Part shown: positions 1 through 58,370 of the stretch, in pieces
Layout: each line of letters begins with the position of its first letter
How positions within the stretch are numbered: position 1 is the stretch's first letter
Assembly (NCBI RefSeq): GCF_000425545.1
Contig: NZ_AUDQ01000005.1
Location: 1-64,000 of the forward strand
DNA from: Sporosarcina ureae DSM 2281
Lineage (GTDB): Bacteria; Bacillota; Bacilli; Bacillales_A; Planococcaceae
DNA: 64,000 bases
Direction of reading: 5' to 3'
Made by a program: the position numbers and the translations under genes
The notes under the pieces: generated by a model
Seen by the model: only the letters and a program-made list of their open reading frames with translations
The model's database searches: none
Told to the model about the DNA's origin: nothing

Positions 1-591
1 GGAGTTTGAGCGGATACCACGCCGCATAGAGCGCATACACGCTGGCATTGAGCGGAACAGCAGATACATAGAGCGCTCGCGGTAGGGCTTTGAGCGGATC
101 AGCAGACACATAGAGCGCTCGCGGTAGGGCATTGAGCGGATGGCGCGTGAGATAGAGCGCTTGGGAGGATGTATTGAGCGGCTCGCGGAGTTTGAGCGGA
201 TACCACGCTGCATAGAGCGCATACACGCTGGCATTGAGCGGATGGCGCGTGCGATAGAGCGCTTGGGAGGATGTATTGAGCGGCTCGCGGAGTTTGAGCG
301 GATAACACACTGCATAGAGCGCATACACGCTAACATTGAGCGGATCAGCAGACACATAGAGCACTTGCGGTAGGGCATTGAGCGGATGGCGCGTGTGATA
401 GAGCGCTTGGGAGGAGGTATTGAGCGGCTCGCGGAGTTTGAGCGGGTAACACGCCGCATAGAGCGGAACAGCAGACACATAGAACGCTCGCGGTAGGGCT
501 TTGAGCGGATAGCGCGTGCGTTAGAGCGCTTAGGGTGCCACATAGAGCGCTCGCGGATGAAGTTTGAGCGAATAACACGCCGGACAAAGCG
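1..591 (+). repeat. Array 1: 21-bp phased GAGCG repeat array (cut by window edge)
   Basis: GAGCG or a one-base variant starts at 8, 29, 50, 71, 92, 113, 134, 155, 176, 194, 215, 236, 257, 278, 296, 317, 338, 359, 380, 401, 422, 440, 461, 482, 503, 524, 545, 566 and, degenerate, 587. Spacing is 21 bp except three steps of 18 bp (176-194, 278-296, 422-440), each with the same filler. The pentamer alternates between ATA-GAGCG-C and TT-GAGCG-G contexts, giving 42-bp dimers, and the 18-bp steps mark higher-order units of 102 and 144 bp, which differ by two 21-mers. Reading frames through the array are open only because 18 and 21 are multiples of three. It lies just behind the terminator of the lipoprotein gene. 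Function unknown. Confidence 0.93.
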
Positions 592-615
592 CACACACTA
601 AAAAACCACACACAA

Positions 616-651
616 AAACGGCCCAAGCATTTAATATGCAGGGCCGTTTTT
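616..651 (-). terminator. Intrinsic terminator of the small lipoprotein gene
   Basis: An inverted repeat with arms AACGGCCC and GGGCCGTT is followed on the minus strand by a run of T. It lies 14 bp behind the stop codon of the lipoprotein gene and about 25 bp before the GAGCG array. Confidence 0.85.
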
Positions 652-664
652 ATAATGGTGGGAA

Positions 665-1069
665 TCATCGTGTTTTACGATCGCCATCGCGTAAAACGCC
701 GTCAGGAGCAGAGTCGCTACCGTTCATGTTGCCGTCCATATTGTTGTCGTCACGTGCACCATGATTTTCGTTGTTGTCATCGATGAGTTCTTCGCGTGTT
801 TTCTCGATACCTTCACGCGTGTCCTCCAGGATGCCCTCGCCGTCACCGTCCATGATCCCCTCGCCGTCGTTGTCCATGATGCCGCGGTCATCATTGTCGT
901 CAAGACCGTCGAGGTTTGGACCCATACGCTGGTTGTCGTTCGGTGTATTGTCACGTTCTACGTCTTGCATGGGCGTTTCATTGTTGTTTGGCAGTGCGCC
1001 GTCGTTCGTGTTACATGCGGTCAGAACGAGTGCAGATGCGAAAACTACGGGTAGAGCTTTTCTGATCAT
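665..1069 (-). CDS. Small acidic lipoprotein
   Basis: A 134-residue protein with an N-terminal signal peptide (Arg-Lys, then a hydrophobic stretch) ending in the lipobox LTAC, so Cys19 should be lipidated and the protein held on the outer face of the membrane. The mature part is low complexity, rich in Asp, Asn and Gly, with a repeated DGEGI motif around residues 68-82 and a short charged segment after it. The start is supported by AAAGGAGGG about 9 bases upstream of the ATG. It is monocistronic, with its own terminator. No enzymatic domain is visible and I do not recognise a family beyond the general look of small Asp/Asn-rich lipoproteins of spore formers. Function unknown. Confidence 0.75.
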   Translation of the reverse strand: MIRKALPVVFASALVLTACNTNDGALPNNNETPMQDVERDNTPNDNQRMGPNLDGLDDNDDRGIMDNDGEGIMDGDGEGILEDTREGIEKTREELIDDNNENHGARDDNNMDGNMNGSDSAPDGVLRDGDRKTR

Positions 1070-1159
1070 AAAAAAATTCCCTCCTTTTTTACAAGCTGTG
1101 AACCATACGTATTGGTATGTTCATCGATAGCTTGTGCGAAAAGGAGAGAACTATTCGTA

Positions 1160-1555
1160 TTAATTATTCGGATAGCCTGATGTGGTTTCTAATACGTTTT
1201 GAACGTATACAGCTTCCGCTTTACAGCCATAATCATAATGTGTATCGAGATTTTGTTGTAAAATTTCAATTTGCGCGATCTGTTCTTCGGTCGGAGGATC
1301 ATTGAGTATGCGGATTAATACTTCCTCCACGCGTTCTGCTAATTCTTTGTGGAACTCGGGATCTACTTTGACGTCGTCCGGAATCTTGTCGTACCAAAGC
1401 GCTTTAGTCGTTATGTATTCCCGCCAGTTCGCATAAAACTGTTCGATGTTATATTCTTCTGCTGACCAGCCGATTTCACTCATGTATTGTTCGAATGATT
1501 GAGAAATGGAACGAGTGATGCTGCTCTTTATATTTGGAGAAAGCTTTTTTAACAT
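1160..1555 (-). CDS. Conserved-looking hypothetical protein, 131 aa
   Basis: A soluble, charged, mostly helical protein without signal peptide, membrane segment or recognisable motif. An in-frame ATG exists ten codons upstream (1585) but has no ribosome-binding site; GGGAGGG lies about 11 bases before the ATG at 1555, so that start (sequence beginning MLKKLSPNIK) is preferred. Codon use and length suggest a real gene. It sits between the lipoprotein gene and fabZ, with about 80 bp to fabZ. I do not recognise the family and no function is proposed. Confidence 0.6.
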   Translation of the reverse strand: MLKKLSPNIKSSITRSISQSFEQYMSEIGWSAEEYNIEQFYANWREYITTKALWYDKIPDDVKVDPEFHKELAERVEEVLIRILNDPPTEEQIAQIEILQQNLDTHYDYGCKAEAVYVQNVLETTSGYPNN

Positions 1556-1639
1556 GCTGTAATGTACCCTCCCACTGTATGCCATATTGGCATTCCAATG
1601 ATTATTATATCAATTATTCAGTATTGCATCGTGATGTTA

Positions 1640-2074
1640 TTATTCTTGGACGGGGCCGAGTGCGAACGTAATATCTGCTTCGCATGCCACTTCGCCGTCA
1701 ACGGTTGCGATGGCTTTTCCTTTACCGATTGTTCCACGTAAGCGAACAATTTCCACTTCGAGACGTAGCGTGTCACCTGGTGTGACTTGGCGCTTGAAGC
1801 GGCAGTTATCGATGCCTGCGAAAAATGCTAGCCGGCCTTTGTTTTCTTCTTTTTTGAGTAAAGCGACTGCGCCAACTTGTGCGAGTGCTTCTACGATTAA
1901 AACACCCGGCATGACCGGATAGCCCGGGAAATGGCCGTTGAAGAAATCTTCATTGATTGAAACGTTTTTCAACCCGACTGCACGCTTGCCTTCTTCGAGT
2001 TCTTCGATGCGATCGACGAGCAAGAATGGATAGCGATGCGGGATAATTTCTTGTATTTGTTGAGCATTTAGCAT
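1640..2074 (-). CDS. fabZ: 3-hydroxyacyl-ACP dehydratase FabZ
   Basis: Dehydrates (3R)-hydroxyacyl-ACP to trans-2-enoyl-ACP in type II fatty acid synthesis in the cytoplasm. The 144-residue hot-dog fold protein carries the family signature [10 protein letters not shown] with catalytic His48, and the catalytic Glu62 in VEALAQ; length is normal for the family. The start has AAAGGAGA upstream. It sits next to the flhO-flhP-mbl block, as in Bacillus subtilis (ywpB). It follows the EpuA-like gene by about 50 bp and may be transcribed with the flagellar genes. Confidence 0.96.
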
Positions 2075-2127
2075 GAAATATGTCTCCTTTATTCCAGAGG
2101 ATCTGAAGAAATCAGATGTTTCTGTAC

Positions 2128-2730
2128 TTATTTACCGTTCATGATATCAAAAATATGCTGCCATGTCTCTTTTTTGAAGACATCGGCTGCTGATCCGTCG
2201 CCAATTACACTGAATCCAACCATTGTACCTGCTATAGCTGCTAAGACAAGCAATACGATGAAAATCAGCAAGCGCAACCAGATCGGTATCAAGCGCACTT
2301 GTACCCAACGCATTTCACTAACAGGTTTTGTGATTTTTTCAGAGCGCTCTTTGCGTGACCATTTCGATTTAATCTTTGTCCAGTATGTCGTGGTGGATTC
2401 TTCTGGCGCAGGTAGTTTTTTGACAGGTTCTGTTTCGACTAGTGGTGTTTCTTCTATTACCTCACCTGGAGCGTCAGGAGTTGTTTCTGGCGCTTCTGTC
2501 TCCGTTGTCGACTCAATGTCTTCTGGAATTTCTTTGTCCGCTGTGAGTGGCTCTGGCTCTGCCACCGTAACTGCCACTTCGTCCATTTCAGTTGGTACGA
2601 CCGGATCTGTTTCTGTCAATTCGATCGGATCTTCCATTTCTGCTGGTTCCGAAGTCTTTAATGGTTCAAATGGTTGTACGGGTGATAGTGGTTCTGTTAT
2701 TTTTTTGAAGTTTTTATTTTTATCAGTCAT
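2128..2730 (-). CDS. EpuA-type membrane protein (often labelled RNA polymerase subunit beta)
   Basis: A 200-residue protein in two parts. Residues 1-120 are Pro/Glu/Thr-rich and probably disordered. The C-terminal 60 residues match the EpuA family: [12 protein letters not shown], one membrane helix (about residues 150-175, ending in a VGFSVIGDG motif), then [18 protein letters not shown] at the end. Members are commonly annotated 'DNA-directed RNA polymerase subunit beta' by transfer, but nothing here resembles RpoB and I would not call it that. The family is usually next to mbl, flhOP and fabZ in Bacillales, as here. The start has GGAG 8 bases upstream. Role unknown; probably membrane- or envelope-associated. 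Confidence 0.8.
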
Positions 2731-2753
2731 AGTAAGTACTCCTATTGCACGCG

Positions 2754-3590
2754 TTAGCGAATGCCATTAATTAAGCCCATCATCTGGTCCGCCATGGTTA
2801 CGGAACGCGCATTGAATTGATAGGCACGTTGCGTCGAAATCAAATCCGCCATTTCTTTTTCATACTCTACGTTGGAAGTTTCGAGCGCTTGATTTTGCAA
2901 TCCAATCTGACTTCGTCCAGCACCTGTCATTTCTGTCAATAAATCATTTGCTGTCAGTCCGATTGCTGCTAGGTCTGTCGGCAAACCAAAGTTGGTTGCG
3001 GAAAGTTGAACCATTGAATCAGGCTTTTCTAGGACAGTGACACCGAGATTAAATTCCTGTGTGCCTTGTGGTGTCGTCACTTGCAATACACCATTCGGAC
3101 GAATTTGATAGTCGGTTGCTTGTCCGGAAAAGACGATTGGACGGCCTGCGCTATCCGCCACCGCGAGTCCTTCTTCATTGACTAGCGCATTGTTGCCATT
3201 TGCAGTTGGCGACAAGTAGAAATTCCCTTTACGTGAATAAATGATTTCCTCTCCGCCGTCCGTTGGCTGGATCAAATTAAAATGTTGTTTCGGTTCCGTT
3301 AGCGCAAAGTCTAGCTGGCGGTCCGTTATTTGTACAGAGCCCACTTTCCAGTTCATCTGCAAGCTGCCGAGGTGCGCGCCAGTCCCCATACGGATGCCAA
3401 AATCTGACCTGCGATCGGCTTGATCTGCTTTGTCATTTTGAATTTGCTGGAATAGTAGTTCTTGGAATGTAGCTGCCGAGGATTTATATCCATGAGTACC
3501 GACGTTCGATAAGTTGTTGCCGATCAAATCGAGACGTTGCTGCAACTGGTTCATCGTGTTGGTCGCTGTAGTCATCGTGCGGATCATCAA
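2754..3590 (-). CDS. flhP: Flagellar hook-basal body protein FlhP
   Basis: A 278-residue rod/hook-type protein of the flagellar basal body. The N-terminus has the flagellar rod signature (TMNQLQQRLDLIGNNLSNVGTHGYKSS) and the C-terminus the paired helix region (LETSNVEYEKEMADLIS, then TQRAYQFNARSV) typical of FlgF/FlgG proteins, so both ends can form the coiled-coil core. It follows flhO by 37 bp in the same operon, as in B. subtilis, where FlhO and FlhP serve as distal and proximal rod proteins. Exported by the flagellar type III system, so no signal peptide is expected or seen. Confidence 0.92.
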   Translation of the reverse strand: MMIRTMTTATNTMNQLQQRLDLIGNNLSNVGTHGYKSSAATFQELLFQQIQNDKADQADRRSDFGIRMGTGAHLGSLQMNWKVGSVQITDRQLDFALTEPKQHFNLIQPTDGGEEIIYSRKGNFYLSPTANGNNALVNEEGLAVADSAGRPIVFSGQATDYQIRPNGVLQVTTPQGTQEFNLGVTVLEKPDSMVQLSATNFGLPTDLAAIGLTANDLLTEMTGAGRSQIGLQNQALETSNVEYEKEMADLISTQRAYQFNARSVTMADQMMGLINGIR

Positions 3591-3627
3591 AGGTCACTTC
3601 CTTTTTGCATGCTTCTATATGTAGTCA

Positions 3628-4452: not shown

Positions 4453-4526
4453 TTCATTTCACTCCTTTGCATCATGTCGAATATTCGTTGTTTTTAGTAT
4501 ACACTACTTGTAGCTTGCATGGCAGG

Positions 4527-5528: not shown

Positions 5529-5636
5529 GGTGACCTCGACTCCTTCCCCATACGTCCTGTCTGATTACACTCTTAGCTGTTCATTATATCATATTTCTAC
5601 TTTATTTGGCATTTTTCGATAGGGGTCGGCAAAACT

Positions 5637-5668
5637 AAAAGCCGCCAGCAAGTTAGCGACGGCTAGTG
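5637..5668 (-). terminator. Probable intrinsic terminator of glpK
   Basis: Imperfect inverted repeat with arms AGCCGtC and GgCGGCT directly behind the glpK stop codon, followed on the minus strand by TTTTAGTTTT. The stem has one mismatch. Confidence 0.6.
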
Positions 5669-5670
5669 AA

Positions 5671-7167
<1,497 letters not shown>

Positions 7168-7198
7168 TCATTCCTCCTGTTGGTGATGTTTGGTGTCT

Positions 7199-7227: not shown

Positions 7228-7232
7228 GGGTT

Positions 7233-8262
7233 GAGGGGGGTGTTCGGGCGATTGAGCGGATGAGCTGATACATAGAGCGGTTGCGGGGTTTGTATTGAGC
7301 GGTTAGCGTGGGGCATTGAGCGGTTAGCGCGAGCGATTGAGCGCTTAAGCTGACATAGAGCGCTCGCGGAGTTAGATAGAGCGGATGGCGCGGGACATAG
7401 AGTGGTTAAGCCAGGACATTGAGCGAGATTGCGCGAGCTATAGAGCGCTTTAGCCAACACACTAAGCATTCGCGGACACGCTTAGGGCATGATAGCGCGA
7501 GCGATTGAGCGCTTGAACTGACATATAGAGCGCTCGCGGAGTTGGATAGAGCGGATAGCGCAGGACATTGAGCGATTGCGGACGGGGATAGAGCGGATAG
7601 CGCAGGACATAGAGCGGTGAAGCCAGCACATTGAGCGAGATTGCGCGCGCTATAGATCGGTTTAGACAACACACTAAGCACTCGCGGACACGCTTAGGGC
7701 ATGATAGCGCGAGCGATTGAGCGCTTGAGCTGACACATAGAGCGCTCGCGGAGTTAGATAGAGCGGATTGCGCGGGACATAGAGCGGTTAAGCCAACACA
7801 TTGAGCGATTGCGGACAGGCATTGAGCGGATAGCGTGGGACATAGAGCGCTTAAGCCAGCACATTGAGCGAGATTGCGCGCGCTATAGATCGGTTTAGCC
7901 AACACACTAAGCACTCGCGGACACGCTTAGGGCATGATGACGCGAGCGATTGAGCGATTGAACTGACACATAGAGCGCTCGCGGAGTTGTATAGAGCGGA
8001 TAGCGCGGGACATAGAGCGGTGAAGCCAGCACATTGAGCGAGATTGCGCGCGCTATAGATCGGTTTAGACAACACACTAAGCACCCGCGAACACGCTTAG
8101 GGCATGATAGCGCGAGCGATTGAGCGCTTGAGCTGACACATAGAGCGCTCGCGGAGTTAGATAGAGCGGATAGCGCGCGACATAGAGCGGTTTAGCAAGC
8201 ACATAGAGCGCTCGCGGCCCCACATAGAGCGGATATCACCCAACATTGAGCGGCCCGGCCCA
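7233..8262 (+). repeat. Array 2: phased GAGCG array with 212-bp higher-order repeats
   Basis: GAGCG and one-base variants (gaggg, gagtg, gatcg) recur mostly every 21 bp, for example 7254, 7275, 7318, 7339, 7379, 7400, 7421, then 7507, 7528, 7549, 7570, 7591, 7612, 7633. The array is punctuated by a hairpin CTAAGC-N12-GCTTAG at 7462, 7674, 7907 and 8077. These intervals are 212, 233 and 170 bp, so they differ by whole numbers of 21-mers (+1, -2). Long open frames across the array have a seven-residue period and no ribosome-binding site; they are by-products of the 21-bp period. It fills the gap between the spoIIID terminator and the glpK promoter. Confidence 0.92.
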
Positions 8263-8299
8263 GTCCGCTCCACTCCAGCCCCATCACACTCAATCAAAC

Positions 8300-8335
8300 A
8301 AAAGCTATCCAGATACATTCCTCTGGATAGCTTTT
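8300..8335 (-). terminator. Intrinsic terminator of spoIIID
   Basis: Perfect inverted repeat with 13-bp arms AAAAGCTATCCAG and CTGGATAGCTTTT around a 10-base loop, 57 bp behind the spoIIID stop codon. Confidence 0.85.
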
Positions 8336-8392
8336 CACATTTTCAGGCTGCTTGTATGGGTACAGTACCTTACTGCTTCATTTTCAGTGTGG

Positions 8393-8665
8393 CTAGGCAT
8401 CTGCTTTTTGTGCTTCGGTTTCATTTTTCCATTTTTGGCGGGTGGCTTCTCCTCCGCGCAGGTGGCGGATGGATTTGTGGTAGGCCAGTATTTCTGCGAC
8501 TTTCCGTGACAAGCATGGGTCTACATTTGGTAATCGTTCGGTTAAGTCTTTGTGGACCGTGCTTTTGGAGTAGCCGGTCGCAGTGGCTAGCGCGCGCACT
8601 GTCAAGTTGGTCTCGATCAGTAGCTTGCCCAGTCGTACGCAGCGTTTTCTAATTTGCTCGTGCAC
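8393..8665 (-). CDS. spoIIID: Sporulation transcriptional regulator SpoIIID
   Basis: A 90-residue DNA-binding protein that switches mother-cell gene expression during sigma-E and sigma-K stages. It has a helix-turn-helix (VRALATATGYSKSTVHKDL, about residues 23-41), the diagnostic motif VHKDLTERLP, and the C-terminal basic region YHKSIRHLRGGEATR that gives extra DNA contacts in B. subtilis SpoIIID (93 residues). The start is a GTG with GAAAGGAAGAGG just upstream. It follows spoIIQ, separated by a terminator, and is cut off from mbl by an array and glpK. Confidence 0.97.
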   Translation of the reverse strand: MHEQIRKRCVRLGKLLIETNLTVRALATATGYSKSTVHKDLTERLPNVDPCLSRKVAEILAYHKSIRHLRGGEATRQKWKNETEAQKADA

Positions 8666-21673: not shown

Positions 21674-22303
21674 TTATTTCGTGCCGAATAAACGGTCACC
21701 CGCGTCACCTAGTCCAGGGACGATATAGCCGTGTTCATCCAACTTTTCGTCTAGCGCCGCGATATACACGTCAACGTCTGGATGTGCTTCTGTCAGAACT
21801 TCGACGCCTTCAGGAGCAGCAACTAGGCACATAAATTTAATATTAACCGCGCCACGCTTTTTCATGGAATTGATAGCTTCGACTGCTGTTCCGCCTGTCG
21901 CAAGCATCGGATCCACTACGATGAATTCACGCTCAGCCACATCAGAAGGTAACTTCACAAAGTATTCAACGGGCTTTAATGTTTCTGGGTCGCGGAATAA
22001 TCCCACATGTCCCACTTTCGCAGCTGGAATTAAATCGATAATTCCATCTACCATGCCAATTCCCGCACGTAAGATCGGAACAATCCCTAATTTTTTCCCT
22101 GCCAAAATATGTGATTTTGCTTCACAGACTGGTGTCTGGATCGTAATTTCTTGCGTTGGAAGATCACGTGTGATTTCGAACGCCATAAGTGTAGCTAATT
22201 CGTTCACAAGCTCGCGAAATTCTTTCGTTCCTGTATCGACCTTTCGTATAAACGTCAGTTTGTGCTGAATTAATGGATGATCAAATACATGTACTTTTCC
22301 CAT
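21674..22303 (-). CDS. upp: Uracil phosphoribosyltransferase
   Basis: Converts uracil and PRPP to UMP in pyrimidine salvage. The 209-residue protein (same length as B. subtilis Upp) has the PRPP motif [15 protein letters not shown] and C-terminal uracil-binding [17 protein letters not shown]. The ATG at 22303 ([10 protein letters not shown]) is chosen over one 11 codons upstream because it follows GGAGCG and matches the family N-terminus. Confidence 0.97.
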
Positions 22304-22334
22304 TGGTATCGCTCCTTTTCGGAATATCTTGTAC

Positions 22335-22343
22335 ATTATAACA
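22335..22343 (-). promoter_or_regulatory. Extended -10 promoter of upp-wecB
   Basis: On the minus strand TGTTATAAT, a perfect extended -10, lies about 32 bp before the upp ATG. No good -35 is seen 17 bp further up, as is usual for extended -10 promoters. Array 3 begins about 100 bp upstream. Confidence 0.6.
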
Positions 22344-22444: not shown

Positions 22445-23868
22445 CGCTCTATGGGCGGGGTTATTCGCTCTATCTTTACGTTGGACCGCTCTATACAACC
22501 CCATGAACGCTCTATCAGGAGCCTCAAGCGCTCAATCGACCCAGTTATCCGCTCTATCGCTCGCACTATCATGCTCTAAGCCGATGCGCGAGAGCTTAGT
22601 GTGTTGTCTAAAACACTCTATCGCCCGCGCCATCTCGCTCTATGTTCGTCCGCGAGTGCTCTATGTGCTAACTTACCCGCTCTATGTCACGTGCTATCCG
22701 CTCTATACAACTCCACAAACGCTCAATGTGAAGCCTCAAGCGCTCAATCGACCCAGTTATCCGCTCTATCGCTCGCACTATCATGCCCTAAGCCGATGCG
22801 CGAGAGCTTAGTGTGTTGTCTAAAACACTCTATCGCCCGCGCCATCTCGCTCTATGTTCGTCCGCGAGTGCTCTATGTGCTAACTTACCCGCTCTATGTT
22901 GCGTGCTATCCGCTCTATACAAATCCGCGTGCGCTCTATGTGGAGCCTCAAGCGCTCAATCACCCCGGTTTTCCGCTCTATCGCCCGCACTGTCACGCTC
23001 TAAGCCGATCCGCGAGGTCTTAGTGTGTTATCCAAAACACGCTATCGCCCGCGCCATCTCGCTCTATGTTCGTCCGAGAGTGCTCTATGTGCTAGCTTAA
23101 CCGCTCTATGTCACGTGCTATCCGCTCTATACAACCCCATGAACGCTCTATCAGGAGCTTCAAGCGCTCAATCGACCCAGTTATCCGCTCTATCGCTCGC
23201 GCTGTCACGCTCTAAGCCGATCCGCGAGGGCTTAGTGTGTTATCCAAAACACGCTATCGCCCGCGCCATCTCGCTCTATGTTCGTCCGAGAGTGCTCTAT
23301 GTGCTAGCTTAACCGCTCTATGTCACGTGCTATCCGCTCTATACAACCCCATGAACGCTCTATCAGGAGCTTCAAGCGCTCAATCGACCCAGTTATCCGC
23401 TCTATCGCTCGCGCTGTCACGCTCTAAGCCGATCCGCGAGGGCTTAGTGTGTTATCCAAAACACGCTATCGCCCGCGCCATCTCGCTCTATGTTCGTCCC
23501 CGAGTGCTCTATGTGCTAGCTTAACCTCACTATGTCACGTGCTATCCGCTCTATACAACTCCGCGAACGCTCTATGTGGAGCCTCAAGCGCTCAATCATC
23601 CCCGTTATCCGCTCAATCCCCCGCGCTGTCACGCTCTAAGCCGATCCGCGAGGGCTTAGTGTGTTATCTAAAACACGCTATCGCCCACGCCATCTCGCTC
23701 TATGTTCGTCCGAGAGTGCTCTATGTGCTAACTTACCCGCTCTATGTCACGTGCTATCCGCTCTATACAACTCCATGAACGCTCTATGTGGAGCCTCAAG
23801 CGCTCAATCATCCCCGTTATCCGCTCAATGCCGACCCACCAGCGCTCAATGAACCAACCCAACCGCTC
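22445..23868 (-). repeat. Array 3: inverted GAGCG array with exact 212-bp higher-order repeats
   Basis: CGCTC on the plus strand (GAGCG on minus) recurs every 21 bp, e.g. 22445, 22466, 22487 and 23843, 23864 at the two ends. The body consists of near-identical 212-bp units; the hairpin CTAAGC-N12-GCTTAG starts at 22576, 22788, 23000, 23212, 23424 and 23636, five exact intervals of 212 bp. The same hairpin with the same flanks, in opposite orientation, is in array 2. Because 212 is not a multiple of three, open frames shift at every unit, arguing against coding. It fills the space between the glyA terminator and upp. Confidence 0.94.
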
Positions 23869-23890
23869 ATAACCCCCCCACCCACCACAT

Positions 23891-23921
23891 AAAAAAAACG
23901 CCCGACACAAGGTCAGGCGCT
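23891..23921 (-). terminator. Intrinsic terminator of glyA
   Basis: Stem GCGCC-TGAC/GTC-GGGCGT (one bulge) followed by eight T on the minus strand, directly behind the glyA stop and before array 3. Confidence 0.88.
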
Positions 23922-23927: not shown

Positions 23928-25181
23928 TTACTTATATAGAGGATGCTGATCTGTTAGAGCTGTAACGGCTTTGCGTGCTTCTTCTTTTGCTGTTGGGTCT
24001 TCGTGGTTTTTCAACAATGTTGCGATGATACGTCCCACTTCTACCATGTCTTTTTCTACGAAACCACGAGTTGTAACAGCCGGTGTACCGATACGGATAC
24101 CAGACGTGATGAATGGTCCTTCTGTGTCGAATGGTACTGTGTTTTTATTCACTGTGATACCAATTTCGTCCAGTACGTGCTCTGCTACTTTACCTGTTAG
24201 TTCAAGTGATTTCAGTTTCACAAGTACGATGTGGTTGTCAGTGCCGCCAGATACAACGTCGATACCTTCTGATTGTAGTTTTTCAGCCAATGCTACAGCG
24301 TTTTTCTTCACTTGTTGTGCATATTCTTTAAATGAAGGATCCAATACTTCTTTGAACGCTACCGCTTTTGCAGCGATTACGTGCATTAAAGGACCACCTT
24401 GGACGCCTGGGAATACCGTTTTGTCGATTTTCTTGCCGAATTCTTCAGCTGTTTCTTCATTTAATAGAATGATACCGCCACGTGGTCCACGCAATGTTTT
24501 ATGCGTTGTGGATGTCACGAAGTGTGCGTGTGGAACTGGGTTTTGATGTTCGCCTACTGCGACTAGACCCGCAATGTGTGCCATATCTACCATCAAGTAT
24601 GCGCCAACTTCATCAGCAATTTCACGGAATTTCGCGAAGTCGATTGCACGTGGGTATGCACTTGCACCCGCAACGATCATTTTCGGCTTGTGCTCAAGCG
24701 CTTTTTGACGAACGTCTTCATAGTCGATGACTTCTTCTTCTTTTGTCACACCGTAATCTACGAAATTATAAAGCTTTCCGGAGAAGTTAACTGGTGAACC
24801 GTGTGTTAAGTGACCGCCGTGAGAAAGGTTCATCCCAAGAACTGTGTCGCCTGGCTCAAGTGCCGTGAAATAAACAGCCATGTTTGCTTGTGCACCAGAG
24901 TGTGGCTGTACGTTTGCATATGCTGCGCCGAAGATTTCTTTTACGCGATCGCGTGCGATGTTTTCGACTACGTCTACATGCTCACATCCACCATAGTAAC
25001 GCTTGCCTGGATATCCTTCAGCATATTTATTCGTCAAGTATGACCCTTGTGCTTCCATTACTGCTTCTGTTACGAAGTTTTCAGATGCGATTAATTCGAT
25101 GTTCGAGTTTTGACGGTTCTTTTCCGCCATGATTGCTTCATATACTGCTGCATCTTCGCGTTGTACATTGCTTAAGTCCAT
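23928..25181 (-). CDS. glyA: Serine hydroxymethyltransferase
   Basis: PLP enzyme converting serine and tetrahydrofolate to glycine and methylene-THF. The 417-residue protein has the PLP-lysine motif [15 protein letters not shown], the cofactor-binding [11 protein letters not shown], and the C-terminal [12 protein letters not shown]. The ATG at 25181 ([10 protein letters not shown]) follows AAAGGGG and matches the family; an upstream in-frame start at 25265 is within ywlG and unsupported. Follows ywlG by 55 bp. Confidence 0.97.
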
Positions 25182-25236
25182 TGGATTGTATCCCCTTTTT
25201 TCTGATAGTTTTATATTTTCTTGTATTGTACACGGT

Positions 25237-25791
25237 TTATTCGTATTTCGCACGACTTCCGCCAATTAATTTTGGACGAGTTGTCGCAAGTGTGATTACA
25301 GCTTCACCGATTTTATTAATGGATGTACGGATCGGTACTACTACCGGCTTCATTTGCATGCCAATTAAAGTTTGTCCGATGTCGATACCCGCATGTGCTT
25401 GCACCGATTCCACTACGACGGGATCACTGAATTGTTTGTACGCATAAGTAGACATCGAGCCACCCGCCTTAAAAACGGGTACGACGGATACAGGTTCCAA
25501 ATGAAATTGCTGTGCCGTCTTGCGTTCCAATGTGATCGCACGATTGATGTGCTCACAGCCTTGGAAAGCTAAATGTACATGGTATTGATCCGCAAACGCT
25601 TGAAGCGGTGCGAATAGTGCTTCTCCTATTTCAAGTGCACCGTTCGTACCGATACGGGCACCAGCTACTTCAGAAGTAGAACAGCCGACGACGAAAATTG
25701 TCTCTTCGGCAGGTGGTGCTTGTTCGGCAAATTCGGTCAATGCTTGTTCTAGCTGCAGTTTCCATAATTGAATGGCATCCACTTGTTCCAC
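25237..25791 (-). CDS. DUF436 / TIGR01440 family protein (YwlG-like)
   Basis: A 184-residue cytoplasmic protein matching the YwlG family: [18 protein letters not shown] near residue 35, [15 protein letters not shown] near 83, and a C-terminal [19 protein letters not shown]. It stands between rpiB and glyA, as in B. subtilis. The start is a GTG directly behind AAAGGAAGC. No enzymatic activity is established that I can name. Confidence 0.85.
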
Positions 25792-32943: not shown

Positions 32944-33540
32944 TTATTTTACATGTTGCGCACGACTGACGGGTACTTCGTGGTGCTGACGGCAACGTGG
33001 TTCATATGCTTCGGATGCGCCAACCAGAATGATGGGATCATCTTGACATGCGGGTTGTCCATCTATCAATCGTTGCGTTCGGCTTGAAGGCGATCCACAA
33101 ACGGTGCAGACCGCTTGGAGTTTTGTCACCAGCTCCGCCACCGCCATTAGTTCCGGCATCGGCCCGAACGGTTCACCTCTGAAGTCTTGATCGAGTCCTG
33201 CAATGATCACGCGAAATCCGCGATCTGCGAGTGCAATCGCGACATCTATAATATCTTTGTCAAAAAATTGAGCTTCATCAATGGCGACCACATCGAAATC
33301 ATCTGATACGAGGTTTGGTATTTCGCTCACTTTGGAAATAGGGTTTGCGATAGTTGACGTACCATCGTGGCTGACAACTGCTTCCTCGCTATACCGATCA
33401 TCAATAGCCGGTTTAAATACCGCAATTTTTTGTTTTGCAAATTCCGCCCGGCGAATCCGACGAATGAGCTCCTCCGATTTACCTGAAAACATGCTGCCGC
33501 AGATGACTTCCATCCAGCCGCCTTGCATTGAAACGTACAT
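32944..33540 (-). CDS. tdk: Thymidine kinase
   Basis: Phosphorylates thymidine to dTMP (type II TK). 198 residues with P-loop [14 protein letters not shown], catalytic Glu in IDEAQFF, the lasso loop with zinc Cys ([15 protein letters not shown] and later Cys/His), and a C-terminal basic tail. The ATG at 33540 follows AAAGGAGA; a TTG two codons earlier is less likely. Array 4 begins about 70 bp upstream; the promoter, if local, must lie in that gap or inside the array. Confidence 0.95.
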
Positions 33541-33612
33541 GGTCAATCTCCTTTCGATGTCGTGCTATATGTATGTGCGTAGTGCGATAAGAGTGGTTTC
33601 GTATGCTACTTT

Positions 33613-34037
33613 GAGCGGTTTGCCGTTTAGATTGAGTGCTTGGTGTGCGGCTATGAGCGGTTGATGGCCTAGATTGAGCGGTTCACGTGTTACTATGAGC
33701 GCTTGGCAGCTTAGTTTGAGCGCTTAACATGCAACTATGAGCGCTTTGCAGCTTAGTTTGAGCGCTTTACGCACAACTATGAGCGCTTGGCAACCCAGAT
33801 TGAGCGTTTAACTCACAACAATGAGCGCTTAGCAGACCAGATTGAGCGCTTAACGCACAACTATGAGCACTTAGCAGCCCGGATTGAGCGCATAACGCAC
33901 AACTATGAGCGCTTAAGAGCCCAGATTGAGCGCTTAACGCAAAACTATGAGCGCTTAGCAGACCAGTTTGAGCGCTTTACGCACAACTATGAGCGCATAG
34001 CAACCCAGATTGAGCGCTCAGCGACCCCAATAGAGCA
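33613..34037 (+). repeat. Array 4: 21 units of exact 21-bp GAGCG repeat
   Basis: GAGCG (or gagtg/gagca) begins at 33613, 33634, 33655, 33676 and so on without one slip to 34033: 20 consecutive intervals of exactly 21 bp. Two contexts alternate, ACTAT-GAGCGC and AGATT-GAGCGC (or AGTTT), giving 42-bp dimers. The filler (CTTAGCAGACCAG, TTAACGCACAA) is unlike that of the other arrays. It fills the gap between the rpmE terminator and tdk. A 97-codon frame through it is a product of the period. Confidence 0.95.
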
Positions 34038-34093: not shown

Positions 34094-34136
34094 TTAATAA
34101 AAATACCCGTCTGGCACGACTGCACCTGACGGGTAT
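34094..34136 (-). terminator. Intrinsic terminator of rpmE
   Basis: Perfect 9-bp stem ATACCCGTC/GACGGGTAT followed by TTTTTATT on the minus strand, just behind rpmE and before array 4. Confidence 0.9.
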
Positions 34137-34362: not shown

Positions 34363-34407
34363 CGATATCTCTCCTTTCGCCCTGAACCATCTGGAACAGA
34401 GTTTGAA

Positions 34408-51837: not shown

Positions 51838-51869
51838 CCTCTTCACCTCTTGCTTTCAACTTAATTCCT

Positions 51870-52721: not shown

Positions 52722-52736
52722 CTGGAATGCCCCCGA

Positions 52737-53927: not shown

Positions 53928-53984
53928 TCCTCTATTCCCCCTAGTAGTTTACTGACTGAACGCTCGCTCGATATCTTACTACTA

Positions 53985-54012
53985 AATAAGAGGGCGTTTA
54001 GACCCTCTTATT
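53985..54012. other. Symmetrical hairpin between fadF and the thiolase gene
   Basis: Perfect 10-bp inverted repeat AATAAGAGGG/CCCTCTTATT with an 8-base loop; the flanks are T-poor. It could be a weak terminator in the operon, lowering thiolase and downstream genes relative to fadF. Confidence 0.6.
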
Positions 54013-54083
54013 AATAGTTTATTGAATTGTTAGCGTTTTAGATATCTTAATTGTACGGTATTTACACGAAATTCGCAATAATT

Positions 54084-56312
54084 TCAATCTTGTTTTCTAT
54101 CGTCGGTTTCCGGTGTTTCATCCTCTGTTTCAACCGTTACAGCCAACTCAGGCTCCAGAATCCCTTCTTCCGACTCTACTATTTCTTCAGGTTCAGCGAC
54201 TGTTTGGTATTCTCCAAAGATCGAGCGTTCCAATAGTTCAGCAATATCGTATGTGCCGACTTGTTCTTCGACTTCAACAGCTTTCGTTCCGTCAGACAAC
54301 ATCGTCAAGCAATACGGACAGCCAGATGAAATGATTCCTGGGCTAACTTCAAGCGCTTGTTCAGTACGTGCTACGTTGACGCGCTGACCCGTATCTTCTT
54401 CCATCCACATCATACCGCCACCCGCTCCACAACACATGCCGTCTTCACGGTTACGTTCCATTTCTACCAACTGTACGCCTGGAATTGCTTTAAGTATTTC
54501 TCTCGGCTGATCGTAGACGTCGTTATAGCGACCTAGGTAACAAGAGTCGTGGAATGTGATAACTTCATCAATTTCATATTTCGGTACTAGCTTGCCTGCC
54601 ATGACCAGTTCGTGTAGCAACTCGGTATGGTGTTTAACGATGACTTTCAGTCCAAAATCTGGGTATTCATTTTTGAAGATATTGTATGCGTGCGGATCGA
54701 TCGTAACAATTTTCGAGACGTTCGCTTTTTCAAATTCTGCGATATTTGCTGTTGCGAGCTCTTGGAATAAGAATTCATTCCCGAGACGACGTGGTGTGTC
54801 TCCCGAGTTCTTCTCTTTGTTACCAAGAATCGCGAAGCTTACCCCTGCTTCATTCAATAAATGTGCGAACGATAGAGCGATTTTCTGTGAGCGGTTATCA
54901 AACGCACCCATAGAACCAACCCATAGTAAGTATTCAAAGTCTTCTCCAGCTTTTTTCGCTTCCTTCACAGTCGGGATGTGCAAGTCTGGACGTGCATCTC
55001 TCCAGTTTTCTTTCTCTTTACGGTTAAGGCCCCATGGATTACCTTGACGTTCGATGTTGGTCATCGCACGCTGTGCATCTGGGTTCATCTTTCCTTCCGT
55101 CATAACAAGATAACGACGAAGATCAATAATTTTATCTACGTGTTCATTCATTACCGGGCATTGATCTTCACAGTTACGGCACGTCGTACATGCCCAAATT
55201 TCTTCTTCTGTGATGACGTCACCGATCAATGAAGGATTGTATAGTTCGTCCATTGTCATTCCTTCTGCCGTAGCAGCGAGTGCCAATTGATTTCCTTGTG
55301 AGTTTTTAAACATTAATTGAGGTACCCATGGCTGTTGCTTCGTCATGACAGCACCTGTGTTTGTTAAGTGATCACGTAGCTTCGTGATCAAGTCCATCGG
55401 TGACAGCATTTTACCTGTACCTGTTGCCGGACACATATTTGTACAACGTCCACATTCTACACATGCATAGAAGTCGATCATTTGCGCTTGTGTGAAGTCC
55501 GTGATCTTGCCTACACCAAGTGGCGGCATATCGTCTTCGTCTTCGATTTCTTCAAGCGCTTCAAAATCGATCGGCTTCAAACGTCCCGCGTGATCTAAAC
55601 GGTGGAAATAAACATTTGCTGGACCCGCGATCAAGTGCGCGTGCTTGGATTGTGGTACATACACCAGGAACGTCAGCAATGTCAGTAAGTGTACCCACCA
55701 GCCAACAAAGAATATGGTAACGGCTACGCCTGTTGGAACAGCGCTGAATACAGTTGCGATGAGCGATGCCATAGGCTCTGTCCATGTAGTGCCTTCATTA
55801 TGCCAAATCATGTTCGCCCCGTTAGCGACCAGTGTGGAAAGCATAAGTAGTCCAATAAATATGAGAACTAGACCGGATTTCCAACCGCGCTTTAGACGAA
55901 CTAGTTTCTCCATGTAACGACGGTAGAATGCCCATACGACCGCTACTAAGATGACGAATACGACAATTTCCTGAAAGAATGTAAATGCCGGATACAACGG
56001 GCCAAGTGGTAGATGTGATCCTGGCTTTAAGCCTTTCCAAATCAGGTCAATTGCGCCGAATTGAACGAGTAGGAAGCCATAAAAGAACATGACGTGGATG
56101 GCCCCACTCTTTTTATCCTTCAATAGTTTCTTTTGTCCGAATACATACACCCAAATTTTCTTTAGACGCGCTTTGACGTCATTGTCGAATTCTTCTTTTC
56201 TCCCCAGTCGGATGAATTCGTAGCGAGTTTTTAATAGATATAGGAATAGACCAAAGCCGTATACAACAACTGCTACAAATAAAATCCAGTTTGCGATGAG
56301 TAGTATATTCAT
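54084..56312 (-). CDS. fadF: Fe-S oxidoreductase FadF (YwjF-like)
   Basis: Membrane electron-transfer protein thought to take electrons from acyl-CoA dehydrogenases or ETF. 742 residues: N-terminal part with about six membrane helices (1-240, nitrate reductase gamma-like), two 4Fe-4S clusters (CVECGRCTNMCPATGTG and CTTCRNCEDQCPV), then CCG domains of the heterodisulfide reductase/GlpC type (SCYLGRYND and GMCCGAGGGMMW), and an acidic tail. First gene of the operon; promoter 56385-56413. In B. subtilis ywjF is next to acdA and rpoE, matching this order. Confidence 0.92.
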   Translation of the reverse strand: MNILLIANWILFVAVVVYGFGLFLYLLKTRYEFIRLGRKEEFDNDVKARLKKIWVYVFGQKKLLKDKKSGAIHVMFFYGFLLVQFGAIDLIWKGLKPGSHLPLGPLYPAFTFFQEIVVFVILVAVVWAFYRRYMEKLVRLKRGWKSGLVLIFIGLLMLSTLVANGANMIWHNEGTTWTEPMASLIATVFSAVPTGVAVTIFFVGWWVHLLTLLTFLVYVPQSKHAHLIAGPANVYFHRLDHAGRLKPIDFEALEEIEDEDDMPPLGVGKITDFTQAQMIDFYACVECGRCTNMCPATGTGKMLSPMDLITKLRDHLTNTGAVMTKQQPWVPQLMFKNSQGNQLALAATAEGMTMDELYNPSLIGDVITEEEIWACTTCRNCEDQCPVMNEHVDKIIDLRRYLVMTEGKMNPDAQRAMTNIERQGNPWGLNRKEKENWRDARPDLHIPTVKEAKKAGEDFEYLLWVGSMGAFDNRSQKIALSFAHLLNEAGVSFAILGNKEKNSGDTPRRLGNEFLFQELATANIAEFEKANVSKIVTIDPHAYNIFKNEYPDFGLKVIVKHHTELLHELVMAGKLVPKYEIDEVITFHDSCYLGRYNDVYDQPREILKAIPGVQLVEMERNREDGMCCGAGGGMMWMEEDTGQRVNVARTEQALEVSPGIISSGCPYCLTMLSDGTKAVEVEEQVGTYDIAELLERSIFGEYQTVAEPEEIVESEEGILEPELAVTVETEDETPETDDRKQD

Positions 56313-56354
56313 CTCTTATTCCCCTTCCATTTCTTCTACTTGAGATCCCCTTTA

Positions 56355-56368
56355 AGAAACCGCTTTCA
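56355..56368 (-). promoter_or_regulatory. cre-like site behind the fadF promoter
   Basis: TGAAAGCGGTTTCT on the minus strand fits the cre consensus TGWAARCGYTTWCW at 13 of 14 positions. It lies about 10-25 nt behind the predicted start, a position where CcpA blocks elongation. B. subtilis fatty acid degradation operons are also catabolite-repressed. Confidence 0.6.
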
Positions 56369-56384
56369 ATACTATTCTATATCT

Positions 56385-56413
56385 AGTGTAATAATGAATG
56401 ATCATTCAGTCAA
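56385..56413 (-). promoter_or_regulatory. fadF operon promoter with internal operator
   Basis: -35 TTGACT (56408-56413), 17-bp spacer, -10 TACACT (56385-56390) on the minus strand. A perfect palindrome TGAATGATCATTCA (56395-56408) lies in the spacer. Its half-site TGAATGA is that of the B. subtilis FadR operator, here without the usual 4-bp centre. The TetR protein at 48.6 kb is the likely binder. Confidence 0.75.
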
Positions 56414-56670
56414 CAGTTTTTAAAAGTTTATTTTTTATTTTCTTACTATGGTTGAAAGACCTTTTTGTCAAGCATTTTTTTATTTTTTGTGATTATTCTC
56501 TCACACAGTCCCGCTATTATAGGCTTTATCGTTATGTTACTTTAATTTACAAATTTATATAGGACCTGGAATCGTTCCAAATTAGCAAAATTATATTCTC
56601 TACACATCTAGCACATTATTATCTAGGATATTACAATACTCTATTTTCATTATATCTGAATATAGCAAAT

Positions 56671-56700
56671 TTGACTATTTCATGATAACGTTTTCATAAT
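56671..56700 (+). promoter_or_regulatory. Alcohol dehydrogenase promoter with cre-like site
   Basis: -35 TTGACT (56671-56676), 18-bp spacer, -10 CATAAT (56695-56700). TGATAACGTTTTCA (56683-56696) matches the cre consensus at 13 of 14 positions and covers the spacer, so CcpA should repress it under glucose. The start would be about 25 nt before the ATG. Confidence 0.6.
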
Positions 56701-56730
56701 GTGTTGCTAACATTGGAAAGGGGTTTTGTT

Positions 56731-57930
56731 ATGTATCGATTGTATGCACGGTCAGTTCAAAAAGGACTCAAAGCAGGAATGAACTATTTACCTTGGCGAG
56801 AGCCTGAGCTGCTAGTCGGGCCTGGTAGTTTGGAAGGCCTTGCGGGGAAAGTGAAAAGTCTTGGAATTCATAGTGTGCTCATTATTACGGATCGCGACAT
56901 CGCCAAGCTAGGTTTACTAGACGTCATGCTAGTTGGGCTCAATTCACTCGGCATCAAATACTTGGTGTATGACCAAACTGTCGCGAATCCCACGATAGTC
57001 AATATCGAAGAAGCGCGCGGTTTGTACGTAGCGAATGAATGCGAAGCGCTCATTGCGTTTGGTGGTGGATCTCCGATTGATTGTGCAAAAGCAGTAGGTG
57101 CAAGAATTGCGAGACCTGAGAAACAGATTCCCGAGTTGAAAGGTTTATTCCACGTGCGCAAGCAAATCCCTACGTTGTTCACGGTACCTACGACTGCGGG
57201 AACAGGAAGTGAAGCAACGCTTGCTGCAGTCGTGACGAATAGTGAGACGCTTGAGAAGTATGCGATCAATGATACGTCACTGATCCCCCACTACGCTGTA
57301 CTCGATCCATTATTGACAATGAAATTGCCGCCAGCGATTACCGCCGCTACTGGAATGGATGCGTTAACGCATGCAGTGGAAGCGTATATTGGCAACAGTA
57401 ATACGAATGAAACGTGGAATGATAGCCGTGAAGTAGTGCAACTCGTATTCTCAAATTTATATGAAGCCTATAGAAATGGAGATAATTTGACTGCGCGAAC
57501 GAATATGCAATGGGCTTCTTATTTAGCAGGCAAAACATTTACAAGGGCGTATGTTGGAAATGTCCATGCGATTGCACACACGCTCGGCGGATTTTACAGC
57601 ATGCCACACGGGTTAGCGAATGCGATTATTTTGCCACACGTGCTCGAGTATTACGGCAAAAGTGTATACGACCCCCTTTCCGAGTTGGCTGATTTAATTG
57701 GTATTACCAGCCATTCGGATACGAGGCAAATGAAGGCCGAGAAGTTTATCGAGGAAATTCGGGCGTTGAATCATGCGATGAATATCCCGGAGCAGGTGGA
57801 TGGAATTATGGTTGAAGATATTCCGTTAATGGTCAAACGCGCCTTTGCAGAAGCGAATCCGTTGTATCCTGTACCGAAGATTTTGAGTAAGAGAGAGTTT
57901 ACGGAGTTGTATGAGGTGATTCGGGTTTGA
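56731..57930 (+). CDS. Iron-containing alcohol dehydrogenase
   Basis: NAD(P)-dependent group III alcohol dehydrogenase; substrate not identifiable (butanol-, 1,3-propanediol- or lactaldehyde-type are possible). 399 residues: nucleotide-binding GGGSPIDCAKAVGA near 97, metal-binding DALTHAVEAYIGN and AIAHTLGGFYSMPHGLANA with the His ligands. The ATG at 56731 follows GGAAAGGGG; an earlier in-frame TTG/GTG at 56701 would lie at the predicted transcription start and is rejected. Only large plus-strand gene besides DUF2529. It ends at array 5 without its own terminator. Confidence 0.92.
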   Translation: MYRLYARSVQKGLKAGMNYLPWREPELLVGPGSLEGLAGKVKSLGIHSVLIITDRDIAKLGLLDVMLVGLNSLGIKYLVYDQTVANPTIVNIEEARGLYVANECEALIAFGGGSPIDCAKAVGARIARPEKQIPELKGLFHVRKQIPTLFTVPTTAGTGSEATLAAVVTNSETLEKYAINDTSLIPHYAVLDPLLTMKLPPAITAATGMDALTHAVEAYIGNSNTNETWNDSREVVQLVFSNLYEAYRNGDNLTARTNMQWASYLAGKTFTRAYVGNVHAIAHTLGGFYSMPHGLANAIILPHVLEYYGKSVYDPLSELADLIGITSHSDTRQMKAEKFIEEIRALNHAMNIPEQVDGIMVEDIPLMVKRAFAEANPLYPVPKILSKREFTELYEVIRV

Positions 57931-57945
57931 TGTGGTTTGGGGATT

Positions 57946-58370
57946 GAGCGGATGCGGGGTTGGATAGAGCGGATGGGCGGATACATTGAGCGTTTTGGTC
58001 TGGAGAATGAGCGAATATGCGGACACTTTGAGCGCTTTAGCCTCGACATTGAGCGGATACGCTGATACATTGAGCGCTTTGGCCTCGGCAATGAGCGGAC
58101 ACGCAGACGCATTGATCGATTAAGCCTCGGCATTGAGCGAACACGCAGACACTTTGAGCGCTTTAGTCTCGACATTGAGCGGACACGCAGACACTTTGAG
58201 CGCTTTAGCCTCGACAATGAGCGGATACGCGGACACTTTGAGCGCTTTAGCCTCGACTTTGAGCGGATACGCAGATACATTGAGCGCTTTGGCCTCGACA
58301 TTGAGCGGACACGCAGACACTTTGAGCGCTTTAGCCTCGACAATGAGCGGACACGCAGAAACATTGAACG
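57946..58370 (+). repeat. Array 5: 21 units of exact 21-bp GAGCG repeat
   Basis: GAGCG begins at 57946, 57967, 57988, 58009, 58030 and so on to 58345 and 58366 (gaacg): 20 intervals of exactly 21 bp, the same count as array 4. Dimers alternate CTTTGAGCGC-TTTAGCCTCG and ACATTGAGCGG-ACACGCAGA. Filler differs from all other arrays. It lies between converging genes: the alcohol dehydrogenase stops 15 bp before it, and the adenosyltransferase terminator is 12 bp behind it. Long frames across it on both strands are products of the period. Confidence 0.95.

What the first reader, a model, noticed from the sequence alone, without database searches (positions are those of the whole stretch)
1..58370. 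Five intergenic arrays with GAGCG once every 21 bp, sharing only the pentamer and the period
Arrays at 1-591, 7233-8262, 22445-23868, 33613-34037 and 57946-58370 carry GAGCG in strict 21-bp register (two B-DNA turns). Within each array the filler is homogenised into 42-bp dimers, but filler differs from array to array. If these were ordinary expanding satellites, filler would diverge together with the pentamer; the shared part is precisely GAGCG plus phase. That points to selection on a same-face series of protein sites or another DNA-level role. I know no described element of this form; it is not CRISPR, REP, DR or parS.
Basis: partly seen in the sequence, partly recalled or inferred. Interest (0 to 1): 0.93.

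Follow-up and report, generated by a model that had tools for sequence, protein, structure and literature searches.

The report
Species-coded two-turn arrays at gene ends
Sporosarcina bacteria and several relatives carry, between their genes, rows of a short DNA word repeated every 20-21 bases, with different words in different species, and these rows likely serve as docking sites for a still unknown protein.

Summary
GAGCG at 21-bp spacing forms arrays throughout this Sporosarcina genome (483 triple hits, reversed-pentamer control 0). In 456.6 kb read, 20 arrays cover about 2%. The shared part is a ~12-bp motif, SWWWGAGCGSWY, not just the pentamer; outside arrays it is no commoner than chance. 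Neighbouring fillers differ at 69% of free positions, yet 329 of 363 core spacings are exactly 21 bp.

GAGCG arrays sit in 32 of 41 orthologous gaps of sister species. The core is a dialect: ATGATCA in S. cascadiensis, TCCGAT in S. koreensis, CGCGAGTATT in another genus. Shorter 20/21-bp arrays with other cores occur in Bacillaceae; in Mesobacillus-type genomes a palindromic leader precedes the array at 20 of 20 loci read.

Arrays are enriched in convergent gaps and beside terminators. I found no replichore polarity, Rfam match on an array, or plasmid/phage relative of the two arrays tried. Best reading: rows of sites for an unidentified DNA-binding protein on one helical face, acting as boundaries at transcription-unit ends. 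Binder and function are inferred. Closest known kind: STAR elements of staphylococci.

The parts
1..591 (+). Array 1 (cut by the contig start), GAGCG units in 21-bp register; terminator-like hairpin of the - strand gene 665-1069 follows at about 615-655
   Evidence: 26 GAGCG at 8-570; hairpin and T/A runs read from the sequence
7233..8262 (+). Array 2, between glpK (5671-7164, -) and a predicted terminator at 8296-8332 (-)
   Evidence: 41 GAGCG at 7254-8252; terminator; glpK
22445..23868 (-). Array 3, between upp (21674-22336, -) and glyA (23928-25265, -), with a predicted terminator at 23890-23921 (-); about 212-bp higher-order repeat, filler shared with array 2
   Evidence: 51 cores on -; terminator; genes; 68% identity to array 2 over 1019 bp
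33613..34037 (+). Array 4, 42-bp dimers, between the thymidine kinase gene (32944-33546, -) and a predicted terminator at 34096-34136 (-)
   Evidence: 18 GAGCG; TRF period 42; terminator; thymidine kinase
57946..58370 (+). Array 5, 42-bp dimers, in a convergent gap between 56701-57930 (+) and 58431-59012 (-), predicted terminator at 58378-58421 (-)
   Evidence: 19 GAGCG; TRF period 42; gap type and terminator

Best explanation
The arrays are rows of a ~12-bp DNA site repeated every 21 bp (two turns of the double helix) between genes, likely bound side by side on one helical face by an unidentified sequence-specific protein and predicted to act as a boundary at the ends of transcription units. 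SHOWN: the motif, the two-turn period, the nearly free 9-bp filler, no excess of isolated sites, arrays in the same gaps of sister species, species-specific cores with an unchanged period, enrichment in convergent gaps and beside predicted terminators. INFERRED: that a protein reads the core, that it binds cooperatively, and that the bound array stops or insulates something (read-through polymerase, supercoils) at gene ends. The dialects would then reflect a binder whose specificity drifts while the arrays of a genome follow; mixed GAGCG/GATCG/GATCA/GAGCA arrays in G116 and GATCA/GAGCG arrays in G250 look like steps of such a drift.
For: Array-weighted unit profile with a 12-bp motif and nearly free filler. 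Core spacing exactly 21 in 329 of 363 while neighbouring fillers differ at 69% of free positions. GAGCG columns differ at 0.018-0.023 per site between this genome and four sisters, other array columns at 0.27-0.35 (alignments tend to anchor on cores). Motif 272 of 278 times inside arrays, 6 outside, 5-10 expected by chance over the sample. 32 of 41 orthologous gaps keep GAGCG arrays. Core spacing exactly 20 in 70 of 76 (Mesobacillus-type) and 21 in 40 of 41 (Robertmurraya) with other cores. Convergent gaps 8 of 19 with arrays against 22 of 141 without, p 0.011; terminator predicted in 12 of 16 against 38 of 96, p 0.013. The A/T profile of the unit has its largest harmonic at 10.5 bp (2.69; next 7.0 bp with 2.15). 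Either orientation on both chromosome halves and in tandem gaps.
Against: No binder was identified and no binding or expression data exist. blastn alignments through arrays show 0.09-0.13 indels per substitution, not fewer than outside (0.06-0.10), and many gaps are 1-2 bp (64 of 120 in G103); these may be compensating or artefacts of aligning saturated filler, but I did not resolve that. Arrays 2 and 3 share filler, so copying between loci contributes to the pattern. Three of 19 placed own arrays are in gaps called divergent, and the wider test (gaps with a gene 3' end against divergent gaps) is not significant (p 0.19). G231 holds three arrays with three cores, unlike one reader per genome. 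Filler has positive GC skew on the core strand in 16 of 20 arrays and Mesobacillus-type arrays have a leader at one end, both strand-specific features a symmetric boundary does not need.
Confidence: 0.42

Rival explanations
1. A self-spreading satellite: an enzyme that recognises the core copies or expands array DNA, so only units with an intact core and register amplify, and the arrays need not benefit the cell.
For: Arrays 2 and 3 share filler over 1019 bp; head-to-tail higher-order repeats; copy number varies widely between sisters; many relatives lack arrays in the stretches read; array DNA diverges 2-3 times faster than other intergenic DNA.
Against: Positions are largely stable across sisters (32 of 41 gaps). 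Robertmurraya arrays have a near-fixed number of units (5 detected units in 7 of 10 loci) and fillers that differ unit by unit. No relative of arrays 3 or 5 in plasmids, nor of array 3 in phages. No candidate enzyme was looked for.
Confidence: 0.25
2. An RNA-level element: read-through transcripts past the terminator carry the repeated core, which binds a protein or backs up termination.
For: Arrays lie beside terminators. In Mesobacillus-type genomes a leader able to form a hairpin stands directly before the first unit at 20 of 20 loci by a loose pattern, and in the loci I read the array lay on the strand of the preceding gene (by eye). 9 of 40 own array strands (7 of 20 arrays) fold at z of -2 or lower against 25 shuffles of their first 260 nt.
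Against: In Sporosarcina tandem gaps the core strand is sense four times and antisense three (my count); G116 carries the glyA-upp array inverted; 31 of 40 strands show no such fold and z reaches +1.9; no Rfam family on any window array.
Confidence: 0.14
3. Strong gyrase or other topoisomerase sites that absorb supercoils between convergent genes, working like gyrase-binding BIMEs of E. coli (comparison recalled).
For: Enrichment in convergent gaps; 10.5-bp harmonic in A/T content.
Against: A fixed species-specific core word with no isolated sites is more than wrapping alone would need; no palindromic unit like REP was seen.
Confidence: 0.09
4. Ordinary neutral minisatellites.
For: Head-to-tail higher-order repeats and variable copy number.
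Against: Core against filler divergence of about 0.02 to 0.3 per site. In the own sample no other lag from 14 to 60 bp recurs besides 21 and 42. Lags 20/21 recur with unrelated cores in Bacillaceae loci (25 of 37 periodic regions) and are absent from 16 stretches of other Firmicutes families, which held only 2 periodic regions.
Confidence: 0.06

Closest known systems
STAR elements of Staphylococcus (PMC3532100: abstract, outline and found passages seen)
   Same: Intergenic direct repeats at many loci, a short conserved GC-rich core, spacers that are distinct per locus, expansion and contraction, function unknown.
   Different: STAR core is 14 bp, T(G/A/T)TGTTG(G/T)GGCCC(C/A), with spacers of at least 40 bp, and locations differ between species; here the core is SWWWGAGCGSWY or another dialect, the period is 20-21 bp, and gaps are conserved between sister species.
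Plasmid iterons (recalled)
   Same: Direct repeats of about 20 bp in register with two helical turns; the 5-6-unit arrays in Bacillaceae look alike in geometry.
   Different: Iterons lie at a plasmid origin and are bound by its Rep protein; these arrays lie at many chromosomal gaps, and arrays 3 and 5 have no plasmid match.
REP/BIME elements of enterobacteria (recalled)
   Same: Many intergenic copies, at ends of transcription units.
   Different: REP units are palindromic; these are direct repeats without a consistent hairpin.
TAACTGA direct repeats of Beggiatoaceae (PMC4679880: abstract, outline and found passages seen)
   Same: Short intergenic direct repeats at many loci, binder unknown.
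   Different: Repeated 7-bp units, mostly just upstream of start codons.

Membership tests
STAR elements | 14-bp consensus T(G/A/T)TGTTG(G/T)GGCCC(C/A) | tested here: not met
   Unit profile is SWWWGAGCGSWY; consensus from PMC3532100
STAR elements | Spacers of at least 40 bp | tested here: not met
   Core spacing 21 bp in 329 of 363
STAR elements | Spacer sequences distinct at each locus | tested here: inconclusive
   Mostly distinct, but arrays 2 and 3 share filler over 1019 bp
STAR elements | Locations differ between species | tested here: not met
   GAGCG arrays in 32 of 41 orthologous gaps of sister species
Plasmid iterons | Direct repeats of about 20 bp in helical register | tested here: met
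   21 bp here; 20 or 21 bp in Bacillaceae
Plasmid iterons | Placement at a replication origin beside a rep gene | tested here: not met
   20 arrays spread over 456.6 kb; window neighbours are glpK, upp, glyA, thymidine kinase genes
Plasmid iterons | Binding by a Rep initiator | not testable with these tools
   Needs a binding assay
REP/BIME | Palindromic unit forming a hairpin | tested here: not met
   Direct repeats in one orientation; 31 of 40 array strands fold no better than z of -2. The Mesobacillus leader is an inverted repeat, but it is not the repeated unit
CRISPR | Repeat-spacer arrays with unique spacers of about repeat length and cas genes | tested here: not met
   21-bp period with ~9 free bp and homogenised fillers; cas genes were not searched
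Chi, KOPS or uptake-type sequences | Excess of isolated copies | tested here: not met
   6 motif copies outside arrays, 5-10 expected by chance in the sample
Chi or KOPS | Polarity along the replichores | tested here: not met
   Both orientations on both halves of G103 (100 of 131 hits listed, origin near coordinate 0 assumed)
Coding heptad repeats | A stop-free frame through the array | tested here: not met
   12 of 20 own arrays have stops in all six frames, 8 have an open frame

The most novel reading that the evidence does not exclude
Planococcaceae and Bacillaceae possess a previously undescribed class of chromosomal boundary element: transcription-unit ends capped by arrays of a short, species-specific code word laid out every two helical turns, read by a fast-drifting DNA-binding protein that assembles along one face of the DNA. 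Reader and sites co-evolve across the genome, a bacterial counterpart of satellite DNA and its reader.
Probability: 0.32. Interest if true: 0.9.

Novelty: new variant of a known kind. Interest (0 to 1): 0.73.

Why it matters
About 2% of the sequence read here is an ordered, constrained repeat of unknown role, and arrays of the same period with other code words occur in a second large family. If a protein reads them, the dialects give a natural series for studying how a DNA-binding specificity and hundreds of its sites change together, and the two-turn spacing predicts the geometry of the complex. If the cell gains nothing, it is an unusually regular bacterial satellite. Either outcome can be tested in soil bacteria.

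Tried and rejected
Coding heptads: GAG CGN reads Glu-Arg in one frame and 21 bp is seven codons, but 12 of 20 arrays have stops in all six frames and GAACG was seen once in 785 in-phase slots. Chi (B. subtilis AGCGG, recalled) lies inside GAGCGG but not GAGCGC; isolated motifs are not in excess. Replichore polarity: none seen (capped list). RNA family: the only Rfam match in the window is an L31 leader at 34371-34401. Plasmid or phage origin: no blastn match for array 5 in plasmids and for array 3 in plasmids and phages; arrays 1, 2 and 4 were not tried. A conserved leader in Sporosarcina: only T/A runs, G/T-rich 7-mers and core remnants are shared by three or more array flanks. Literature: ten searches listed nothing that describes such arrays in Planococcaceae or Bacillaceae; most subscription papers are not held, and only two papers were opened.

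Limits and slips: one search used a wrong gap length and was replaced. One search gave no harmonics (slicing error) and was redone. The profile counts a palindromic shadow (C5 96216-96346) as a 21st array; later counts use 20. Coding masks hide arrays inside spurious ORFs, so lag counts are lower bounds. The 80 upp loci are related, so their arrays are not independent. In one search two Mesobacillus-type loci (L311, L327) were mis-anchored, so 8 of 20 terminators is a low count (shuffled rate 0.75%). Gene calls are plain ORF calls. I made no search for a binding protein or a copying enzyme.
Full report
OBSERVATION. The five arrays are real. GAGCG occurs 144 times on the + strand and 119 times on the - strand of the window, with pair spacings peaking at 21 bp and its multiples; clusters of 26, 41, 18 and 19 (+) and 51 (-) copies coincide with the reported arrays. 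Tandem Repeats Finder gives 42-bp dimers in arrays 4 and 5, but also 102-144 bp in array 1, 170-233 bp in array 2 and 212 bp in array 3. The window is the start of contig C5 of a 3.32-Mb genome. GAGCG-N16-GAGCG-N16-GAGCG matches 320 times forward and 163 times reverse genome-wide; the reversed pentamer matches 0 times.

WHAT IS SHARED. I read 456.6 kb of the genome: C5 whole and C1:230001-490000 (plus the window). It holds 20 arrays with at least four in-phase cores (21 rows, one a palindromic shadow), about 2% of the sequence. With each row weighted equally and in-phase slots without GAGCG included, the pentamer carries 1.8-2.0 bits per base. The shoulders are constrained too: -4 is G/C (0.84), -3 to -1 are A/T (0.96-0.97), +5 is G/C (0.88), +6 is A/T (0.93), +7 is T/C (0.94); the other nine positions carry 0.23 bit or less. 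So the unit is a ~12-bp motif, SWWWGAGCGSWY, plus a nearly free filler. A lag scan from 14 to 60 bp finds only 21 (17 regions) and 42 (21 regions) recurring; the 19 lag-21 regions listed at a looser threshold all carry GAGCG. The motif occurs 278 times, 272 in or within 60 bp of arrays and 6 elsewhere; five Markov draws gave 5-10 over the whole sample. It is not used as a single site.

CONSTRAINT. In 20 own arrays 329 of 363 core spacings up to 30 bp are exactly 21, and 23 are 20 or 22. Free positions of neighbouring units differ at 69%, at +42 bp at 53%. Aligned to four sisters, GAGCG columns differ at 0.018-0.023 per site and the other array columns at 0.27-0.35 (alignments tend to anchor on cores). 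Non-array intergenic DNA shows 0.06-0.10 indels per substitution, so with filler this diverged relaxed spacing should rarely stay at 21, if filler changes mainly by point mutation. Against this, the same alignments show 0.09-0.13 indels per substitution inside arrays, many of 1-2 bp (64 of 120 gaps in G103, 147 of 200 in G128). Since spacings are mostly 21 these may be compensating or alignment artefacts, but I did not resolve it. Filler is not always independent: arrays 2 and 3 align over 1019 bp at 68%, so array DNA has probably moved between loci.

SISTER SPECIES. I fetched the syntenic block from ten congeners. Of 41 usable orthologous gaps, 32 carry an array with at least three in-phase GAGCG: array 1, 5 of 6 (G140's stretch ended there and was dropped; three more lacked the flank); array 2, 5 of 7; array 3, 7 of 10; array 4, 8 of 10; array 5, 7 of 8. 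Flank identities of the 32 were 77-96%. Thirty-one have the orientation of the own array; G116's glyA-upp array is inverted. Filler of own units matches the orthologous array better than other arrays of the same sister in 19 of 31 comparisons (5 of 5 in G103, 1 of 5 in G182), while in-phase slots of all arrays, own included, read GAGCG in 720 of 785 (slots are picked by GAGCG neighbours, which favours the core).

DIALECTS. The control column of the family search showed genomes with the reversed pentamer. Reading them revealed arrays of 21-bp period with the core CGCGAGTATT in another genus. S. cascadiensis (G250) carries ATGATCA units in the glyA-upp gap. Across 68 Sporosarcina genomes three in-phase ATGATCA occur only in G250 (42 hits) and G245 (5), and three in-phase TCCGAT only in G260 (155), G227 (115), G254 (3) and G152 (1); the own genome has 0 of either. 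The exclusion is not total: G260 and G227 also have 31 and 23 GAGCG triple hits, G250 has 7. G116 mixes GAGCG, GATCG, GATCA and GAGCA in one array, and G250 mixes GATCA with GAGCG, as expected of intermediates. G231 has three arrays with three different cores, so one dialect per genome is not a rule. In the family sample 110 of 250 genomes match the GAGCG pattern, many with one or two hits that could be chance or coding; in a phylum sample with four units 5 of 398 match, own included, and the other four look like coding heptads or short-period repeats. Many relatives showed no array in the stretches read: 58 stretches of 20 kb gave 9 periodic non-coding regions, of which 5 have lag 21 or 42.

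BEYOND THE GENUS. Eighty named loci around upp were scanned for any core: best lags were 21 (20 regions), 20 (9), 42 (4), 52 (4), 41 (2), 60 (2) and three single ones. In the 72 non-Sporosarcina loci 25 of 37 regions have lag 20 or 21; 16 stretches from other Firmicutes families hold 2 periodic regions, neither at 20 or 21. The loci are related, so these are not independent. Whole-genome searches gave 29 CCCGCAAT triple hits in Robertmurraya massiliosenegalensis, 2 and 3 in two others, and 25, 23 and 28 TCGCTAT triple hits in three of five genomes searched (Bacillus sp. ISL-45, Mesobacillus selenatarsenatis, M. subterraneus), all with control 0. In 10 Robertmurraya loci the spacing is 21 in 40 of 41 (the exception separates two arrays), 7 of 10 with five regular units detected, usually after a variant first unit. 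In 20 Mesobacillus-type loci the spacing is 20 in 70 of 76, and a 28-bp imperfect palindrome (TGGAAA...ATTTCCAGT) stands directly before a first unit in 20 of 20 by a loose pattern, with L316 the least perfect. Across dialects the core often looks like a GC-rich word next to TAT/ATA(AA); this is read by eye and not tested. Common descent of Bacillaceae and Sporosarcina arrays is not shown.

PLACE AND POLARITY. With rough ORF of 19 placed own arrays lie in convergent gaps against 22 of 141 non-array gaps (p 0.011); 8 are in tandem and 3 in divergent gaps. The wider test, gaps with a gene 3' end against divergent ones, is not significant (p 0.19). In convergent and tandem gaps a terminator is predicted in 12 of 16 with arrays against 38 of 96 without (p 0.013). 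In tandem gaps the core strand is antisense three times and sense four times (my count, taking the 98-aa ORF at 8356-8652 as spurious). In the complete G103 genome arrays of at least seven units show both orientations on both halves (100 of 131 hits listed). Of nine window proteins near arrays that I scanned, glpK, upp, glyA, thymidine kinase, rho and a cobalamin adenosyltransferase passed a family cut-off.

EXPLANATION. The data ask for something that reads a ~12-bp core, demands two-turn spacing, mostly ignores the filler, needs many sites at once, tolerates either orientation, and sits where transcription units end. A protein assembling on one face of the DNA as a boundary or roadblock fits best. 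Binder, cooperativity and effect are inferred. The main rival is a satellite whose own copying machinery selects the core. The RNA reading gains from the Mesobacillus leader, from arrays standing on the strand of the preceding gene in the Mesobacillus loci read (by eye), and from 7 of 20 own arrays with a strand folding at z of -2 or lower.

NOVELTY. The closest described kind is the STAR element (PMC3532100: abstract, outline and passages seen). The present arrays fail its consensus, spacer length and species-specific location, so they are not STAR; they are a new variant of the same broad kind, with iteron-like geometry (iterons recalled). Ten literature searches listed no earlier description.

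Noticed in passing
L310-L329 (Mesobacillus-type genomes): A 28-bp imperfect palindrome TGGAAA...ATTTCCAGT stands directly before the first 20-bp unit, often right after a terminator; its role is unknown.
   Followed up: partly
window 34371-34401: Rfam L31-Firmicutes ribosomal protein leader on the - strand, the only Rfam match in the window.
   Followed up: no
window 1-591: The contig starts inside array 1, so the draft assembly may break at such arrays.
   Followed up: no
own arrays, C5 and C1: Filler has positive GC skew on the core strand in 16 of 20 arrays (mean 0.17), and C/G at position +5 alternates between neighbouring units more than shuffled (168 of 299, shuffle mean 136, maximum 160), partly because of dimer duplication.
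   Followed up: no
L092-L098 (Sporosarcina koreensis-like clade, glyA-upp gap): Two kinds of 21-bp arrays (TGTCCGATWC and TGATSGARAAA) alternate with a repeated longer element containing AACAAGCGAAGCGC (by eye).
   Followed up: no
G659 contigs C2-C4 (Robertmurraya massiliosenegalensis): All 29 CCCGCAAT triple hits lie on the - strand of their contigs, a possible polarity that Sporosarcina arrays lack.
   Followed up: no
L205, L253, L256, L273, L113: 52/53-bp tandem arrays recur beside the 20/21-bp class in Bacillaceae and Planococcaceae loci.
   Followed up: no
L076, L078 (G140, G094): upp is matched with stop codons inside or near the reading frame in these two sisters, perhaps only beyond the gene's ends.
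   Followed up: no
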